Assembly: GCF_000024965.1 (NCBI RefSeq)
Contig: NC_013530.1
Location: 1,426,001 to 1,490,000 of the forward strand
Source of the DNA: Xylanimonas cellulosilytica DSM 15894
Lineage (GTDB): Bacteria; Actinomycetota; Actinomycetes; Actinomycetales; Cellulomonadaceae
DNA length: 64,000 nt
Direction: 5' to 3'
Shown: in pieces, positions 22,782 to 34,213 of the stretch
Layout of the letters: the number at the start of each line of letters is the position of its first letter
How positions within the stretch are numbered: the first letter of the stretch is position 1
The notes under the pieces: model-generated
What the model saw: only the letters and a program-made list of their open reading frames with translations
Told to the model about the DNA's origin: nothing
Database searches by the model: none
Translations under genes and position numbers: made by a program

Positions 22782-23462
22782 GTGAGCACCCCGAGCAGCC
22801 CGGCCCCGGCCGAGACCCAACCGTCGACGGTCCCGGGTCACGCCTGGTATGCACGTGACGTGCACGACGTCGCCCGCGACCTGCTCGGCGCGGTGCTGGT
22901 ACGCCGCACACCAGAGGGCACCGTGGCGCTGCGCATCACCGAGGTCGAGGCGTACGACGGCGAGGACGACCCCGGCTCGCACGCGTTCCGTGGCCGCACG
23001 CCCCGCAACGCGACGATGTTCGGCGAACCCGGCCGCGTCTACGTGTACCGGCACCTCGGGCTGCACCACTGCGTCAACGTCGTCTGCGGCCCGGTGGGCC
23101 GCGCCGCCGCCGTCCTCCTGCGCGCGGGCGAGGTGGTCGAGGGCGCTGCCCTCGCCCGGTCCCGCCGCCTCGCGGTCGGTGCCTGCGACTCCGACCGGCA
23201 GCTCGCGCGCGGCCCCGCCCGGCTCACGGTGGCGCTCGCCCTGAGCCTGTCCGACGACGGCGCGGACCTCACCGACCGTGAAGGCGACCTGACGCTGACG
23301 CTGCCCGTCGACCGGGAACGCGGCGCGGTGGCCACCGGCCCGCGCGTGGGGGTGAGCGGCGAGGCAGGCCGCGGCGACCTGTACCCCTGGCGGTCGTGGC
23401 TGGTGGGGGAGCCGACCGTGTCGGCCTACCGGCCCGTCTCGCCGCGCCGCCGGCCCGCCTGA
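22782..23462 (+). CDS. mpg: DNA-3-methyladenine glycosylase (AAG/MPG family)
   Basis: 226 residues. It removes alkylated purines to start base-excision repair. Seen: ARDLLGAVLVRR, the catalytic glutamate region ITEVEAYDGEDDPGSHAFRG, TPRNATMFGEPGRVYVY and HHCVNVV, all in family order. The N-terminal 18 residues are a low-complexity Pro/Ser/Thr lead-in. GTG start chosen by the -10 box 6 nt upstream. Confidence 0.93.
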   Translation: MSTPSSPAPAETQPSTVPGHAWYARDVHDVARDLLGAVLVRRTPEGTVALRITEVEAYDGEDDPGSHAFRGRTPRNATMFGEPGRVYVYRHLGLHHCVNVVCGPVGRAAAVLLRAGEVVEGAALARSRRLAVGACDSDRQLARGPARLTVALALSLSDDGADLTDREGDLTLTLPVDRERGAVATGPRVGVSGEAGRGDLYPWRSWLVGEPTVSAYRPVSPRRRPA

Positions 23463-23507
23463 GGGGCGGACTGCGTGGGGCGTCGCCGTCGTCGTCGGGC
23501 ACACTGG

Positions 23508-23533
23508 GTCCGGCGGCCGCGTGGCCGCCGGAC
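23508..23533 (+). other. Hairpin in the tyrS leader
   Basis: GTCCGGCGGCC (23508-23518) pairs perfectly with GGCCGCCGGAC (23523-23533) around a GCGT loop, 73 nt before tyrS. It may end mpg transcription or act in the tyrS leader. I see no T-box core sequence. Confidence 0.55.
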
Positions 23534-23605
23534 CTCCGGCCTGGCAGGCCGCGTTCCCGACGGGCCGCATGGTCTGTCGACCCGAACCACACGAGGAGTA
23601 CCACG

Positions 23606-24865
23606 GTGACCGACGTTCTCGACGAGCTGCAGTGGCGGGGCCTGGTGGCGCAGACCACCGACGAGGCCGCGCTGCGTTCCGCGCTGGCCGAGGGCCCGAT
23701 CACCTATTACTGCGGCTTCGACCCGACCGCGCCCAGCCTGCACCACGGGCACCTGGTCCAGCTCGTCGTCCTGCGCCACCTGCAGCTGGCCGGCCATCGC
23801 GCCGTCGCGCTCGTGGGCGGGGCGACGGGCCTGATCGGCGACCCGCGCCAGTCGGGGGAGCGGGTGCTCAACACCAAGGAGACGGTCGCCGACTGGACCG
23901 AGCGGCTGAAGGCGCAGGTGTCCCGGTTCCTCGACTTCGAGGGAGACAACCCCGCGTTGCTCGTCAACAACCTGGACTGGATCTCCGAGCTGTCGGCGAT
24001 CGACTTCCTGCGTGACGTGGGCAAGCACTACCGGCTCGGAACCATGCTCGCGAAGGACACCGTCGCGCGCCGGCTGCGGTCCGAGGAGGGCATCAGCTTC
24101 ACCGAGTTCAGCTACCAGATCCTCCAGGGGATCGACTTCCTGGAGCTGCACCGCCGGCACGGGGTGTCCCTGCAGACGGGGGGCAACGACCAGTGGGGCA
24201 ACCTGCTCTCCGGCGTCGAGCTCATCCGCAAGGCCGAGGGCACGGCCGTGCACGTGCTCACCACGCCCCTCATCACGAAGGCCGACGGGACGAAGTTCGG
24301 CAAGACCGAGGGCGGTGCCGTGTGGCTCGCACCGGACATGATGAGCCCGTACGCGTTCTACCAGTACTGGCTCAACGCCGCCGACGAGGACGTCGTGGGC
24401 TGGCTGAAGATCTTCACGTTCCGCTCGCGGGAGGAGATCGCCGAGCTCGAGACGGCGGTGCGCGAGCGGCCGGGCGCGCGCGAGGCGCAGCGTGCGCTCG
24501 CGAGCGACGTGACGACGCTCGTGCACGGGGCCGCGGCGACGGAGGCGGTGATCGCCGCGAGCCAGGCCCTGTTCGGCCGTGGTGAGCTGCGCGACCTCGA
24601 CGAGGCGACGCTGCGCGGCGCGGTCGCCGAGCTTCCCCGGACGACGGCCAAGCCCGGCGACCTGATCGTGGACGCGTTCGTGGGTGCAGGGCTGGTCGCC
24701 TCCAAGGCGGCGGCCCGCCGGGCGATCGGCGAGGGCGGCGCGTACGTCAACAACGTCAAGGTGACCTCGGAGGAGCAGGTCTTCGAGGCCGGCGACCTGC
24801 TGCACGGCAGGTACGCCGTGCTGCGCCGCGGCAAGAAGACGCTCGCGGTGGCGGACGCGTCCTGA
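23606..24865 (+). CDS. tyrS: Tyrosine-tRNA ligase
   Basis: 419 residues from GTG 23606, with GAGGAG 8-13 nt upstream. Class I synthetase: HIGH-type motif His46-His-Gly-His49 (PSLHHGHL), YQILQGIDFLEL, GGNDQWGN, and the KMSKS-equivalent KFGKT at 230-234. A C-terminal S4 RNA-binding domain begins near residue 355 (LVASKAAARRAIGEGGAYVNN). It charges tRNA-Tyr. It immediately precedes the rrn operon. Confidence 0.97.
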   Translation: MTDVLDELQWRGLVAQTTDEAALRSALAEGPITYYCGFDPTAPSLHHGHLVQLVVLRHLQLAGHRAVALVGGATGLIGDPRQSGERVLNTKETVADWTERLKAQVSRFLDFEGDNPALLVNNLDWISELSAIDFLRDVGKHYRLGTMLAKDTVARRLRSEEGISFTEFSYQILQGIDFLELHRRHGVSLQTGGNDQWGNLLSGVELIRKAEGTAVHVLTTPLITKADGTKFGKTEGGAVWLAPDMMSPYAFYQYWLNAADEDVVGWLKIFTFRSREEIAELETAVRERPGAREAQRALASDVTTLVHGAAATEAVIAASQALFGRGELRDLDEATLRGAVAELPRTTAKPGDLIVDAFVGAGLVASKAAARRAIGEGGAYVNNVKVTSEEQVFEAGDLLHGRYAVLRRGKKTLAVADAS

Positions 24866-25341: not shown

Positions 25342-30435
<5,094 letters not shown>

Positions 30436-30455
30436 CACCACACACTACTTTGCTA

Positions 30456-30469
30456 CGCGTCCACTGTGC
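30456..30469 (+). other. 3' arm of the 23S RNase III processing stem
   Basis: CGCGTCCACTGTGC is an exact 14-base complement of 27203-27216, so the 23S precursor can form a continuous stem. It sits in the 126-bp 23S-5S spacer, which holds nothing else recognisable. Confidence 0.8.
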
Positions 30470-30561
30470 GGTTCCCGAGAAACGGGCAACCACCCCCACC
30501 CCACACCACCCCCCACACGGGGCAGGCGCGGGCAACGGGGGCACCCGAACAACTCGATACT

Positions 30562-30680
30562 GTTACGGCGGTCACAGCGTAGGGGAAACGCCCGGTCCCA
30601 TTCCGAACCCGGAAGCTCAGCCCTACAGCGCCGATGGTACTGCCCTGGAGACGGGGTGGGAGAGTAGGACGCCGCCGGAC
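30562..30680 (+). rRNA. rrf: 5S ribosomal RNA
   Basis: About 119 nt: GTTACGGCGGTCACAGCG at the 5' end, CGGTCCCATTCCGAACCCGG, GGTACTGC and GGGAGAGTAGG, with GCCGCCGG closing helix I. Ends approximate. Confidence 0.96.
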
Positions 30681-30690
30681 ACCCTTCACG

Positions 30691-30722
30691 AAAGACCCCG
30701 CACCACACGGTGCGGGGTCTTT
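30691..30722 (+). terminator. rrn operon terminator
   Basis: AAAGACCCCGCACC (30691-30704) and GGTGCGGGGTCTTT (30709-30722) form a perfect 14-bp stem with an ACAC loop just after 5S. Confidence 0.92.
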
Positions 30723-30833
30723 CGCATACCCAGACACGCACGCGGAGATCACAAGCCCGATCCGGGCATCCGCGAGTGCCACTTGCTCCTGACGTGGGAG
30801 AATCGATCGACCCACGAACCCGAGAGGACCACC

Positions 30834-33200
30834 GTGAACGATTCCGCCCGCGACCAGGGTGACGAGCGCGGCGACCGCCGAGGACGCCGCTTCGACAATG
30901 ACCGTCGAGGTCCTCGCTCCGAAGGCCGGCCCGGCGGTGACCGTCCTCGTTCCGGTGACCGTCCTCGTTCCGGCGAAGGGCCCCGATCGGGAAGCGGATC
31001 GTGGCAGCGCGGTGGCGGTGAGCGTCACGGAGGCGAGCGGGGGGCCCAGGGTTCCGACCGCCGCGAGGGTGGCTTCCGACGCGACGACCGCCAGGGCGGG
31101 TTCCGGAGGGACGACCGTCCCGGCGCAGGACGCGACGGTGACCGCCGCGACGACCGGGGCGCCGAGCGTCGCGATGGCGGCTACCGCCGCGACGATCGCC
31201 CTGCCGGTGGCTTCCGCCGTGATGACCGTGGCGACGGTGGACCTCGTGGTGCTGACCGTCGTGAGGGCGGGTTCCGGCGCGATGACCGTGGTGGGGATCG
31301 TCCGACCGGTGGCTTCCGTCGTGATGACCGCGGTGAGGGTGGACCTCGTGGTGGGGATCGCCGTGAGGGTGGCTTCCGTGGTGGTGATCGTCCGACCGGT
31401 GGCTTCCGCCGCGATGATCGCGGCGAAGGTGGACCTCGTGGTGGCGACCGCCGTGAGGGCGGGTTTCGCGGTGGTGATCGTCCGACCGGTGGTTTCCGCC
31501 GCGATGATCGCGGCGAAGGTGGACCTCGTGGTGGCGACCGCCGTGAAGGCGGGTTCCGGCGTGATGACCGGGGTGGTGATCGTCCGACCGGTGGTTTCCG
31601 TCGTGATGACCGCGGTGAGGGCGGGCCTCGTGGTGGGGACCGTCGTGAGGGCGGGTTCCGCGGTGGTGATCGTCCGACCGGTGGTTTCCGCCGCGATGAC
31701 CGCGGCGAAGGTGGACCTCGTGGTGGCGACCGTCGCGAGGGCGGCTTCCGTCGTGACGACCGTGCCACGGGTGGTTTCCGTCGTGACGACCGCGAGGGTG
31801 GTCGTCGTGGTGGCGACCGTCGTGAAGGCGGCTTCCGGCGTGATGACCGGGGTGGTGATCGTCCGACCGGTGGTTTCCGTCGGGATGACCGTGGCGAAGG
31901 TGCACCTCGTGGTGGGGACCGTCGTGAGGGCGGCTTCCGCGGTGGCGACCGTCGTGAGGGCGGCCACCGTCGGGACGACCGGTCGTCCGAGTTCCGCGGC
32001 GGTGATCGTCGTGACGGCGGGGCCCGCCGTGATGACCGAGGGCGCAGCGACGGCGGCCGGCGCGAAGGACCCGGAGCTGGTGACCGTGGCGGGCGCCCTT
32101 CGTTCGAACGCGATCGTCCCGCACGTGACGCTCGGCCCGGGCGGGACGAGCGTCCCTTCCAGCCGCGGGTCCAGGAGCCGGAGATCGCGGAGGACGTCGA
32201 CTTCCGCCAGCTGGCGAAGGACGCGCGCGAGCGTCTGCGCGGCCTGACGAAAGACAATGCCGAACGTGTCGGTGAGCACCTGGTCATGGCCGGCCGGCTG
32301 CTCGACGTCGACCCGGAGCTGGCCTACGAGCACACCCTGGCAGCCGTGCGTCGAGGCGGCCGCATCGACATCGTGCGTGAGGCCGCGGGTATTGCGGCCT
32401 ACCGGACGGGGCGCTATGCGGAGGCCTTGCGTGAGCTGCGGACCGTGCGTCGGCTGAACGGCTCGTCCGAGCACCTCGCGATCATGGCTGACGCGGAGCG
32501 TGGCCTCGGCCGACCCGAGCGTGCGATCGCACTCGCCTCCTCGCCTGAGGCCGACACGCTCGACCCGTACAGCACGGTCGAGCTGGCGATCGTGGTCAGC
32601 GGCGCTCGCTCCGATCTCGGCGAGCACGATGCCGCGCTCCTCGCGCTCGAGAAGCTGCCGACGCTCAAGGGCGACCTAGCACTGCGTGTCCTCCAGGCCC
32701 GTGCCGCGGCGCTCGAGGCCGCCGGTCGCACGGCGGAGGCCGCCGCGCTCCTCGCCGACATCGACCCCGACGACCTTGAGCGTGCTGCGGGCAATACCGA
32801 GCCCGAGGACGACATCGTCGTCTACGACGTCTACGACGAAGAAGCTGACGCCGAGGAGGCTGACGCCGAGGAGGCTGACGCCGAGGAGGCTGACGCCGAG
32901 GAGGAGGACGCCGAGGACGTCGAGGACGTCGAGGACGTCGAGGACGTCGAGGACGTCGAGGACGGGGATCACCTCGACGACGTCGACGACGCAGAGGTCG
33001 ATCACGATGCCGCGCCCGACGCCGAGGGTGATCAGGGCGATGGCCCCGATGACGCCGCGGCGGACCTTGACACGAGGGCTCACGGCGACGATGACGATGA
33101 CGATGATGGTGCCGACGTCGACGAGCTGACCCGTGGCGCCGACTCTGTCGATGGTTCTGCCGCTCAGGCTGACGTGGAGGACGAGGAGCCGCGATCGTGA
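30834..33200 (+). CDS. Rv1691-like TPR protein with giant Arg/Asp/Gly repeat region and acidic tail
   Basis: 788 residues from GTG 30834, after CGAGAGGACC. Three parts: residues 1 to about 435 are almost only R, D, G, E, F, S and P, with RDDRGEGGPRGGDRREGG units repeating every 30-34 residues; about 450-655 is a helical TPR-like domain (FRQLAKDARERLRGL, LVMAGRLLDVDPELAYEH, ALRELRTVRRLNG); about 660-788 is a very acidic tail with EEADA and EDV repeats. The middle domain and the position between the tyrS/rrn block and the HAD-tlyA-NAD kinase genes match M. tuberculosis Rv1691, whose function is unknown and which I recall as lacking the repeat part. RGG-like disordered regions often bind RNA and form condensates; an RNA or ribosome-linked role is inference. 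Next gene overlaps by four bases. Confidence 0.85.
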   Translation: MNDSARDQGDERGDRRGRRFDNDRRGPRSEGRPGGDRPRSGDRPRSGEGPRSGSGSWQRGGGERHGGERGAQGSDRREGGFRRDDRQGGFRRDDRPGAGRDGDRRDDRGAERRDGGYRRDDRPAGGFRRDDRGDGGPRGADRREGGFRRDDRGGDRPTGGFRRDDRGEGGPRGGDRREGGFRGGDRPTGGFRRDDRGEGGPRGGDRREGGFRGGDRPTGGFRRDDRGEGGPRGGDRREGGFRRDDRGGDRPTGGFRRDDRGEGGPRGGDRREGGFRGGDRPTGGFRRDDRGEGGPRGGDRREGGFRRDDRATGGFRRDDREGGRRGGDRREGGFRRDDRGGDRPTGGFRRDDRGEGAPRGGDRREGGFRGGDRREGGHRRDDRSSEFRGGDRRDGGARRDDRGRSDGGRREGPGAGDRGGRPSFERDRPARDARPGRDERPFQPRVQEPEIAEDVDFRQLAKDARERLRGLTKDNAERVGEHLVMAGRLLDVDPELAYEHTLAAVRRGGRIDIVREAAGIAAYRTGRYAEALRELRTVRRLNGSSEHLAIMADAERGLGRPERAIALASSPEADTLDPYSTVELAIVVSGARSDLGEHDAALLALEKLPTLKGDLALRVLQARAAALEAAGRTAEAAALLADIDPDDLERAAGNTEPEDDIVVYDVYDEEADAEEADAEEADAEEADAEEEDAEDVEDVEDVEDVEDVEDGDHLDDVDDAEVDHDAAPDAEGDQGDGPDDAAADLDTRAHGDDDDDDDGADVDELTRGADSVDGSAAQADVEDEEPRS
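31211..31960 (+). repeat. 90/102-bp coding tandem repeat array
   Basis: The marker TCCGACCGGTGG (Arg-Pro-Thr-Gly) recurs at 31301, 31391, 31481, 31583, 31673 and 31862, with a drifted copy near 31763. Spacings are 90, 90, 102, 90, 90 and 99 bases, all multiples of three. Copies are nearly identical and use GGT, CGT and GAT codons more than the neighbouring genes do. The array is the DNA basis of the Arg/Asp/Gly region. Confidence 0.9.
32844..32960 (+). repeat. 15-bp and 9-bp coding repeats of the acidic tail
   Basis: Four exact copies of GCTGACGCCGAGGAG (32844-32903) are followed by five exact copies of GACGTCGAG (32916-32960). They encode ADAEE and DVE units and are likely to vary in number between strains. 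Confidence 0.92.
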
Positions 33201-34213
33201 GCACGGCTGGTCTGCTCGGCAGTGACGTCCCACTTGCCGAGGCGTACGATCTCGCGCTCGTCGACCTCGACGGTGTCGCGTACCGGGGGCATCTGCCGAT
33301 CGAGCATGCGTCCGACAGCCTCGTCGCGGCACGGTCGCGAGGACTGCGTCTGCTGTTCGTGACCAACAACGCCTCGCGTGAGCCCGAGGACGTGGCCGGT
33401 CAGCTCACGGAGCTCGACATCCCGACGTCGGCGGATGAGGTGATGACCGCGGCCCAGGCCTGCGCGGCGCTGCTGCGAACGCGGCTCGAACCTGGCGCGC
33501 GCGTCCTCGTCGTCGGCGGGAAAGGCCTGGTCACGGCGGTGACGGCCGCGGGTTTCCGCGTCGTGTCGTCCGCCGACGAGGAGCCGGTCGCCGTCGCGCA
33601 GGGGTTCGCTCCGGACCTCGCCTGGGCGGACCTCGCAGAGGCGGCCTACGCCGTGTCGGCGGGGGCGTGGCACGTGGCGAGCAACCGCGACCTGTCGCTG
33701 CCCACGGCGCGGGGATACGCCCCCGGCAACGGCGCCCTCGTCGGCGCGGTGGTGGCGGCGACCGGCGTCGAACCGGCGAGCGCAGGAAAGCCCGAGCCGA
33801 CGATGTACCACCTCGCCGTCGAGCGGGTCGGCGCGCAGCGGCCGCTGGTGATCGGCGACCGCCTCGACACCGATCTGCAGGGTGCTCGCGCAGGCGACTA
33901 CCCGGGCCTGCACGTGCTGACCGGGGTGTCGTCGGCGCGCGACGACGTCCTCGCCGAGCCGGCACTTCGGCCGCACTTCATCGGCGCCGACCTTCGTTCG
34001 TTGCTGGAGACCCACCCAGTGCCCGAGCCCGGTGCCGACGGGTGGTGGGAGTGCGCCGGACGGGCGGCTCGCGTCGTCGACGGCCGCCTCGAGCTCGATC
34101 GCGAAGGTGTGCGCGGTATCGACGTCGTGCGCGCGGCGTGCGCGGCGGCGTGGGATGCCGCCGATGCCGGCCGACCCGTGGCACCGGACAGCGTTCCGGA
34201 GCTCACCGCGTAG
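33197..34213 (+). CDS. HAD-IIA (NagD-like) phosphatase, Rv1692-like
   Basis: 338 residues. HAD motif I is DLDGV with Asp23 and Asp25; motif II is FVTNNAS; motif III/IV are KPEP and IGDRLDTDLQGA, with a large C2a cap between, typical of NagD/phosphoglycolate-type phosphatases. M. tuberculosis Rv1692, in the same place, has been described as a glycerol-3-phosphate phosphatase in lipid recycling; transfer of that role here is inference from synteny. GTG start overlaps the previous stop (GTGA). Confidence 0.9.
   Translation: MSTAGLLGSDVPLAEAYDLALVDLDGVAYRGHLPIEHASDSLVAARSRGLRLLFVTNNASREPEDVAGQLTELDIPTSADEVMTAAQACAALLRTRLEPGARVLVVGGKGLVTAVTAAGFRVVSSADEEPVAVAQGFAPDLAWADLAEAAYAVSAGAWHVASNRDLSLPTARGYAPGNGALVGAVVAATGVEPASAGKPEPTMYHLAVERVGAQRPLVIGDRLDTDLQGARAGDYPGLHVLTGVSSARDDVLAEPALRPHFIGADLRSLLETHPVPEPGADGWWECAGRAARVVDGRLELDREGVRGIDVVRAACAAAWDAADAGRPVAPDSVPELTA

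What the first reader, a model, noticed from the sequence alone, without database searches (positions are those of the whole stretch)
30834..33200. Rv1691-like TPR protein carrying a 400-residue Arg/Asp/Gly repeat domain and a mirror-charged acidic tail, directly after the rRNA operon
Seen: residues up to about 435 are built from RDDR/GGFRR/GGDRRE units, the middle is TPR-like, and the last 130 residues are EEADA, EDV and poly-Asp. Known: the locus is conserved with Rv1691, which I recall as lacking these parts; RGG-type disorder commonly drives RNA binding and phase separation. Inference: a lineage-specific RNA- or ribosome-associated condensate protein, with the acidic tail possibly self-masking the basic repeats. 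It also sits 110 bp after the rrn terminator. This is my best candidate for something undescribed.
Basis: partly seen in the sequence, partly recalled or inferred. Interest (0 to 1): 0.75.

Follow-up and report, generated by a model that had tools for sequence, protein, structure and literature searches.

The report
Arginine-rich TPR protein behind rRNA genes
A little-studied protein made of a long, floppy, arginine-rich arm joined to a helical docking domain is encoded right behind ribosomal RNA genes in most of the actinobacteria examined, and may act as a scaffold in making ribosomal RNA.

Summary
ORF 30834-33200 encodes 788 aa: a 444-residue Arg/Gly/Asp repeat arm, a TPR solenoid (445-665) and a 123-residue acidic tail, starting 153 nt after the 5S gene. 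It is neither lineage-specific nor an artefact. The TPR core is in 269 of 296 sampled Actinomycetes genomes and 71 of 198 across the phylum. All 84 measurable N-termini (of 97 loci fetched) have 16-36% Arg and net positive charge, including five loci with third-position GC 0.33-0.43, which use Arg, not Lys. Mycobacterial-type copies have short arms rather than none. Codirectional rRNA lies upstream in 77 of 97 loci; 14 more end at a contig edge; 6 lack it. In three genomes rrn plus this gene is duplicated as one block ending near the TPR stop codon. A published pull-down places the M. smegmatis orthologue with RNA polymerase, without detectable DNA (PMC7092591). Best reading: a phylum-wide RNA- and RNA-polymerase-associated scaffold tied to rRNA production. 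Architecture, composition and linkage are shown; RNA binding, condensation and the tail's role are inferred.

The parts
25343..30680 (+). rRNA operon: 16S 25343-26866, 23S 27315-30438, 5S 30564-30680
   Evidence: Rfam matches over gathering score
30689..30724 (+). terminator-like hairpin between 5S and the gene
   Evidence: a stem of at least 7 bp is found in 72 of 79 such intergenic regions
30795..30803 (+). extended -10-like element TGGGAGAAT, 30 nt before the start codon
   Evidence: recurs as TGnGAnnAT-like at a similar place in close relatives (read by eye); the sigma-70 consensus scan found no promoter; -10 reading is inference
30834..33200 (+). complete coding sequence, 788 aa
30834..32165 (+). 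Arg/Gly/Asp mixed-charge disordered arm, residues 1-444
32166..32828 (+). TPR solenoid core, residues 445-665
32829..33197 (+). acidic tail, residues 666-788
33197..34213 (+). HAD-IIA family phosphatase; its inferred start codon overlaps the TPR stop codon
34574..35620 (+). TlyA-family rRNA (cytidine-2'-O)-methyltransferase
   Evidence: TIGR00478 185.7 bits against a cut-off of 185.8
23396..24865 (+). tyrS upstream of the rRNA operon (true start may lie further in)

Best explanation
A phylum-wide actinobacterial protein (the Rv1691/MSMEG_3754 group): an Arg-rich, Lys-poor, mixed-charge disordered arm on a TPR solenoid, with an acidic tail in many lineages, encoded as the gene next behind an rRNA operon. 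SHOWN: the architecture; conservation of arm composition across genomes of very different base composition; the rrn linkage; duplication of rrn plus this gene as one block in three genomes of one genus. INFERRED: it is an RNA- and RNA-polymerase-associated scaffold in rRNA transcription or early ribosome assembly. Arg (and aromatic) residues make weak multivalent contacts with nascent RNA and with other mixed-charge proteins. Interspersed Asp keeps the arm soluble and the contacts reversible. The TPR solenoid docks a specific partner. The acidic tail, where present, competes with RNA for the arm.
For: Core in 269 of 296 Actinomycetes genomes. Arm R 16-36%, net positive, in 84 of 84 measured of 97 loci; loci with GC3 0.33-0.43 keep 21-23% R and 0-2% K. 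Charges better mixed than shuffles in 64 of 64 arms of 100 aa or more, 57 with z below -2. Purifying selection between repeat units. rRNA codirectional upstream in 77 of 97, and 11 of 20 in other classes; median 5S-to-start 124 nt in 75 loci. In G026, G104 and G279 both copies lie behind their own rrn and one of each pair has lost HAD/TlyA as neighbours. Neighbour TlyA is an rRNA methyltransferase family. MSMEG_3754 recovered with anti-RNA-polymerase, no DNA recovered with the tagged protein (PMC7092591; passages and section 5 part 1).
Against: No direct evidence of RNA binding or of condensates. The pull-down used formaldehyde and 214 high-confidence proteins, ribosome being the most enriched cellular component, so proximity is weak evidence; and the M. 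smegmatis arm is expected to be short. Alternating R/D peptides did not phase separate in vitro (PMC9324279 abstract), and this arm alternates. rrn linkage can be old gene order, and rrn recombination alone can duplicate a neighbour. Some loci lack rRNA upstream (6 of 97; 4 of 20 in other classes) yet keep the gene. TlyA was detected downstream in only 39 of 97 loci.
Confidence: 0.4

Rival explanations
1. Adaptor of the neighbouring HAD phosphatase: the TPR solenoid binds and positions the HAD enzyme, the arm is a solubility tether, and rrn adjacency is only ancestral gene order.
For: HAD start overlaps the TPR stop in the window. A HAD relative lies downstream on the same strand in 68 of 97 loci, 28 of them within -40 to 150 nt. 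TPR and HAD are fused in L176 and L207.
Against: In three genomes the second copy of the gene keeps rrn but not HAD. HAD is not adjacent in the majority of loci, though diverged HADs may have been missed by tblastn. A phosphatase adaptor does not explain an Arg-rich arm.
Confidence: 0.18
2. Proteostasis role: a ClpC1 adaptor or substrate, or a chaperone-like TPR protein whose charged arm keeps clients soluble.
For: MSMEG_3754 is listed in a ClpC1 interactome table (PMC10433963, one passage). TPR domains commonly bind protein peptides (general knowledge).
Against: One table row among many; does not explain the rrn linkage or the Arg-not-Lys arm.
Confidence: 0.12
3. Neutral or near-neutral repeat expansion: the arm is an entropic spacer whose length drifts by repeat slippage in GC-rich genomes, with no specific role.
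For: Arm length runs from 34 to 903 residues and rises with GC3 (rho 0.46); R and G content rise weakly with GC3 (rho 0.25 and 0.30). Repeat units differ between genera.
Against: All 84 measured arms keep 16% R or more, also at GC3 0.33-0.43. Synonymous changes dominate between units. Arm GC3 is below core GC3 in 62 of 65. Charge mixing exceeds shuffles, though a repeated well-mixed unit inflates this.
Confidence: 0.15

Closest known systems
Rv1691 / MSMEG_3754 (mycobacterial TPR-repeat protein of unknown function)
   Same: Gene order TPR - HAD - tlyA (PMC3072309 lists lprJ, Rv1691, Rv1692, Rv1693, tlyA, ppnK, recN; one passage); mycobacterial-like loci hold the same core
   Different: Arm of only 38-57 residues and practically no acidic tail in the mycobacterial-like loci; the Rv1691 sequence itself was not fetched
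[quoted passage not shown]
   Same: R and D as main charged residues, Lys-poor, low complexity (PMC9324279 abstract; arm composition)
   Different: Also very rich in Gly with Phe; bacterial; fused to a TPR solenoid; condensation untested
RGG/FGG-type RNA-binding disordered domains
   Same: 17 RGG, 18 GGFR, 24 aromatic residues in 444
   Different: High Asp content with evenly alternating charge, unlike the recalled typical RGG domain
MamA and other generic TPR scaffolds
   Different: 12% identity; tied with many unrelated TPR chains; no charged disordered arm in the solved chains; fold shows no function
RNase E disordered C-terminus (BR-bodies), recalled
   Same: Charged bacterial disordered region linked to RNA-associated bodies (recalled, no call)
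   Different: Blocky charge pattern and nuclease core there (recalled); evenly mixed charge and TPR core here

Membership tests
TPR solenoid proteins | stacked antiparallel helix pairs | tested here: met
   AlphaFold2 core pLDDT 94.9 and PDB fold matches to TPR proteins
TPR solenoid proteins | match to a Pfam TPR model above its curated cut-off | tested here: not met
   best TPR_2 21.0 bits against 27; TPR_14 20.6 against 23.5
Rv1691/MSMEG_3754 group | same core by profile and same gene order (TPR, HAD, TlyA) | tested here: inconclusive
   core and gene order met in unnamed mycobacterial-like genomes; Rv1691 itself not fetched, so orthology with the named gene rests on gene order and inference
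Arg-enriched mixed-charge domain (R-MCD) | R and D as main charged residues, Arg preferred to Lys | tested here: met
   R 128, D 71, E 27, K 0 in 444; K median 0 in 84 arms
Arg-enriched mixed-charge domain (R-MCD) | targets or forms condensates | not testable with these tools
   no call
RGG-type RNA-binding domain | binds RNA | not testable with these tools
   no call; the published test of the orthologue was for DNA only and was negative (PMC7092591)
rRNA transcription / ribosome assembly factor | physical association with RNA polymerase, pre-rRNA or pre-ribosomes | not testable with these tools
   literature only: anti-RNA-polymerase pull-down of MSMEG_3754 (PMC7092591)
rRNA transcription / ribosome assembly factor | stable genomic link to rrn | tested here: met
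   77 of 97 loci, 14 cut by a contig edge, 6 without; gene-order inertia not excluded

The most novel reading that the evidence does not exclude
Actinobacteria have a dedicated, near-universal scaffold of rRNA production: an Arg-rich mixed-charge arm on a TPR hub, made from a gene held behind the rRNA operon, which gathers nascent rRNA, RNA polymerase and modification or assembly factors into a nucleolus-like condensate, with the acidic tail as a built-in release switch in the lineages that have one.
Probability: 0.17. Interest if true: 0.92.

Novelty: new variant of a known kind. Interest (0 to 1): 0.63.

Why it matters
Bacterial rRNA operons have been reported to cluster (search listings), but I know of no dedicated disordered scaffold for them. 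This protein's core is in about nine tenths of sampled Actinomycetes genomes, its arm resembles eukaryotic nucleolar and speckle sequences in composition, its gene sits behind rrn, and its mycobacterial orthologue has already been recovered with RNA polymerase. Natural arm lengths from about 34 to 900 residues give a ready series for testing what Arg-rich mixed-charge sequence does in bacteria.

Tried and rejected
Assembly artefact: rejected; relatives in other genera and families carry the same composition with different repeats.

GC-drift artefact: rejected as sole cause, although arm length rises with GC3.

Simple co-transcription with rrn: not supported as the rule. A hairpin lies between 5S and the inferred start in 72 of 79 regions (score 20 or more in 65, against 1 of 79 single shuffles), and an extended -10-like element recurs in close relatives. 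In 12 of 65 regions 40 nt or less separate hairpin and inferred start, so read-through, or a promoter inside the hairpin, stays open there. Starts were chosen by a Shine-Dalgarno heuristic and some are wrong (L209; L227 and L229, seen).

My first repeat statistic (pN 0.005) was biased because the copies were picked by identity of their first 15 residues; one search repeats it on unpicked residues. The pS/pN of the 8-aa motifs has the same bias and is not used.

Family label: NCBIfam had no match for the window core; 8 of 21 relatives matched a type III secretion chaperone model weakly, taken as generic TPR similarity. Fold search gave only generic TPR matches. A PDB sequence search gave MamA at E 0.0086.

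Comparison with other window genes is weak: crude gene calling, the target gene itself not selected by it, top rows probably 5' extensions.

Kinship: correlations and counts treat related loci as independent. The 97 loci came from 96 of the 269 matching genomes, picked by me for family coverage and contig length, not at random. One search left out L177; searches used only arms of 100 aa or more.

Papers that describe the architecture: none found; the library is open-access only and most of these were seen as listings.

Full report
WHAT IS THERE. The gene at 30834-33200 (+) encodes 788 aa, with GAGAGGA just upstream of a GTG start and an extended -10-like TGGGAGAAT at 30795-30803. The consensus promoter scan found nothing, so this -10 rests on conservation seen by eye. 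Upstream are tyrS and an rrn operon whose 5S ends at 30680, then a hairpin at 30689-30724. Downstream a HAD-IIA phosphatase frame begins inside the TPR stop codon, followed by a TlyA-family rRNA methyltransferase. The genome holds one copy of the gene and three 5S genes in 3.83 Mb, so a random gene would lie within 6 kb downstream of a 5S in well under 1% of cases.

ARM. Residues 1-444: R 128, G 127, D 71, E 27, P 26, F 22, no K; fraction charged 0.51, net charge per residue +0.07; kappa about 0.03 against 0.141 +/- 0.021 in 200 shuffles, i.e. an unusually even alternation of R and D/E. Six copies of a 30-aa unit, picked by their first 15 residues, differ in residues 16-30 by pS 0.436 and pN 0.010: DNA drifts, protein is held. 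The arm uses T-ending codons heavily (GGT 55 of 127 Gly codons, CGT 62 of 128 Arg codons), and arm third-position GC is below core GC3 in 62 of 65 relatives.

CORE AND TAIL. With a 102-sequence alignment the core models as a TPR solenoid, mean pLDDT 94.9, pTM 0.88. Fold matches are generic TPR proteins. Pfam TPR models stay below their cut-offs. In the full-length model (five sequences) residues 1-460 and 655-788 are below pLDDT 50. The tail has 62 acidic residues in 123.

DISTRIBUTION. The nearest named relatives are Xylanimicrobium (91%), Xylanimonas, Puerhibacterium and Isoptericola (best 80 of 122 relatives kept); the window is probably from Promicromonosporaceae (inference). With a profile of the core, 269 of 296 Actinomycetes genomes match. 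Of genomes drawn from the whole phylum 71 of 198 match, 54 of these 71 outside the class and with lower scores. In the window's genus 9 of 11 match. I fetched 97 usable Actinomycetes loci and 20 of other classes. Of the 97, 84 arms were measured: length 34-903 (median 249), R 16-36% (median 23%), K median 0, net positive in 84 of 84. Nine were dropped for a contig edge or no start codon. Four were dropped because the start heuristic left under 20 aa: read by eye, L227 and L229 do have an Arg-rich N-terminus, L176 has 20 Arg-rich residues, and L207 has a short stretch that is not clearly Arg-rich; L176 and L207 are TPR-HAD fusions. Five loci with GC3 0.33-0.43, from genomes of 1.3-2.2 Mb, keep 21-23% R and 0-2% K. 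In other classes several N-termini look Arg-rich (for example L241, L244, L248, L255, L257), some are short (L242, L246), and L243 is not clearly so (read by eye, starts uncertain). Tails: 48 of 83 are 30 aa or longer and 75 of 83 net negative; arm and tail net charge correlate at rho -0.62, uncorrected for kinship.

RRN LINKAGE. Codirectional rRNA lies within 6 kb upstream of the core in 77 of 97 Actinomycetes loci; 14 end at a contig edge within 2 kb of the frame; 6 show none (L161, L165, L188, L191, L218, L223, some with only 2-4 kb to look at). Other classes: 11 of 20, with 5 edges and 4 none. From 5S end to inferred start the median is 124 nt (10-90%: 84-405) in 75 loci. For mycobacteria the other side of the link, rrnB behind tyrS, is published, and only some species have rrnB (PMC10218544, passages), which would fit L161 and L165 if those are mycobacteria. 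In G026, G104 and G279 (one genus) the gene occurs twice, each copy behind its own rrn; one copy of each pair has HAD and TlyA behind it, the other has not; aligned copies are 98.5%, 97.9% and 99.7% identical. The homologous block reaches back to the end of a fetched stretch, through 23S into 16S, and ends 673-678 nt after the core start: 7-9 nt after the stop codon in G104 and G279, about 23-26 nt before its end in G026. In G036 two diverged copies (170 of 285 aligned residues identical) both follow a 5S. So these duplicates keep rrn and drop the other neighbours; recombination between rrn copies could also produce this without functional need.

WHAT IS IN PRINT. MSMEG_3754, named there as orthologue of Rv1691, was chosen from the high-confidence list of proteins recovered with anti-RNA-polymerase beta from formaldehyde-treated M. 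smegmatis; tagged protein recovered no DNA (PMC7092591; passages plus section 5 part 1). It is also in a ClpC1 interactome table (PMC10433963, one passage). Alternating R/D peptides did not phase separate, blocky ones did with RNA (PMC9324279, abstract and outline). No description of the arm or of the class-wide rrn link was found.

HOW IT PROBABLY WORKS. The polymerase pull-down without DNA, the rrn linkage and the Arg-not-Lys composition together favour contact with RNA and the transcription or assembly machinery. The evenly mixed charges argue for weak, reversible contacts rather than tight RNA binding, and count against simple self-driven condensation. The TPR core would supply specificity. 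HAD adaptor, proteostasis adaptor and inert spacer are not excluded. I put the scaffold reading at 0.40.

VERDICT. Observation confirmed.

Noticed in passing
L211, L212, L214, L273, L274, L275: In three genomes of one genus the rrn operon and the TPR gene are duplicated as one block that ends near the TPR stop codon.
   Followed up: partly
L176, L207: TPR core fused in frame to the HAD phosphatase, with a very short N-terminus.
   Followed up: partly
L277, L278: Two diverged copies of the gene in one genome (G036), each behind a 5S gene.
   Followed up: partly
30834-32165 and relatives: The arm uses T-ending Gly and Arg codons far more than the core; GC3 is lower in the arm in 62 of 65 relatives. 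Expression, mRNA structure or repeat stability could explain it.
   Followed up: partly
L198, L250, L210, L214, L146: Only about 18-31 nt lie between the hairpin behind 5S and the inferred start codon, leaving little room for a separate promoter.
   Followed up: no
upstream of the start codon in relatives listed: A TCACA/TGTGAC-like word recurs some tens of nt upstream of the -10-like element in many close relatives (by eye).
   Followed up: no
L267 (genome G477): The arm's reading frame is interrupted by a stop close to the core in one same-genus genome; sequencing error or real, not resolved.
   Followed up: no
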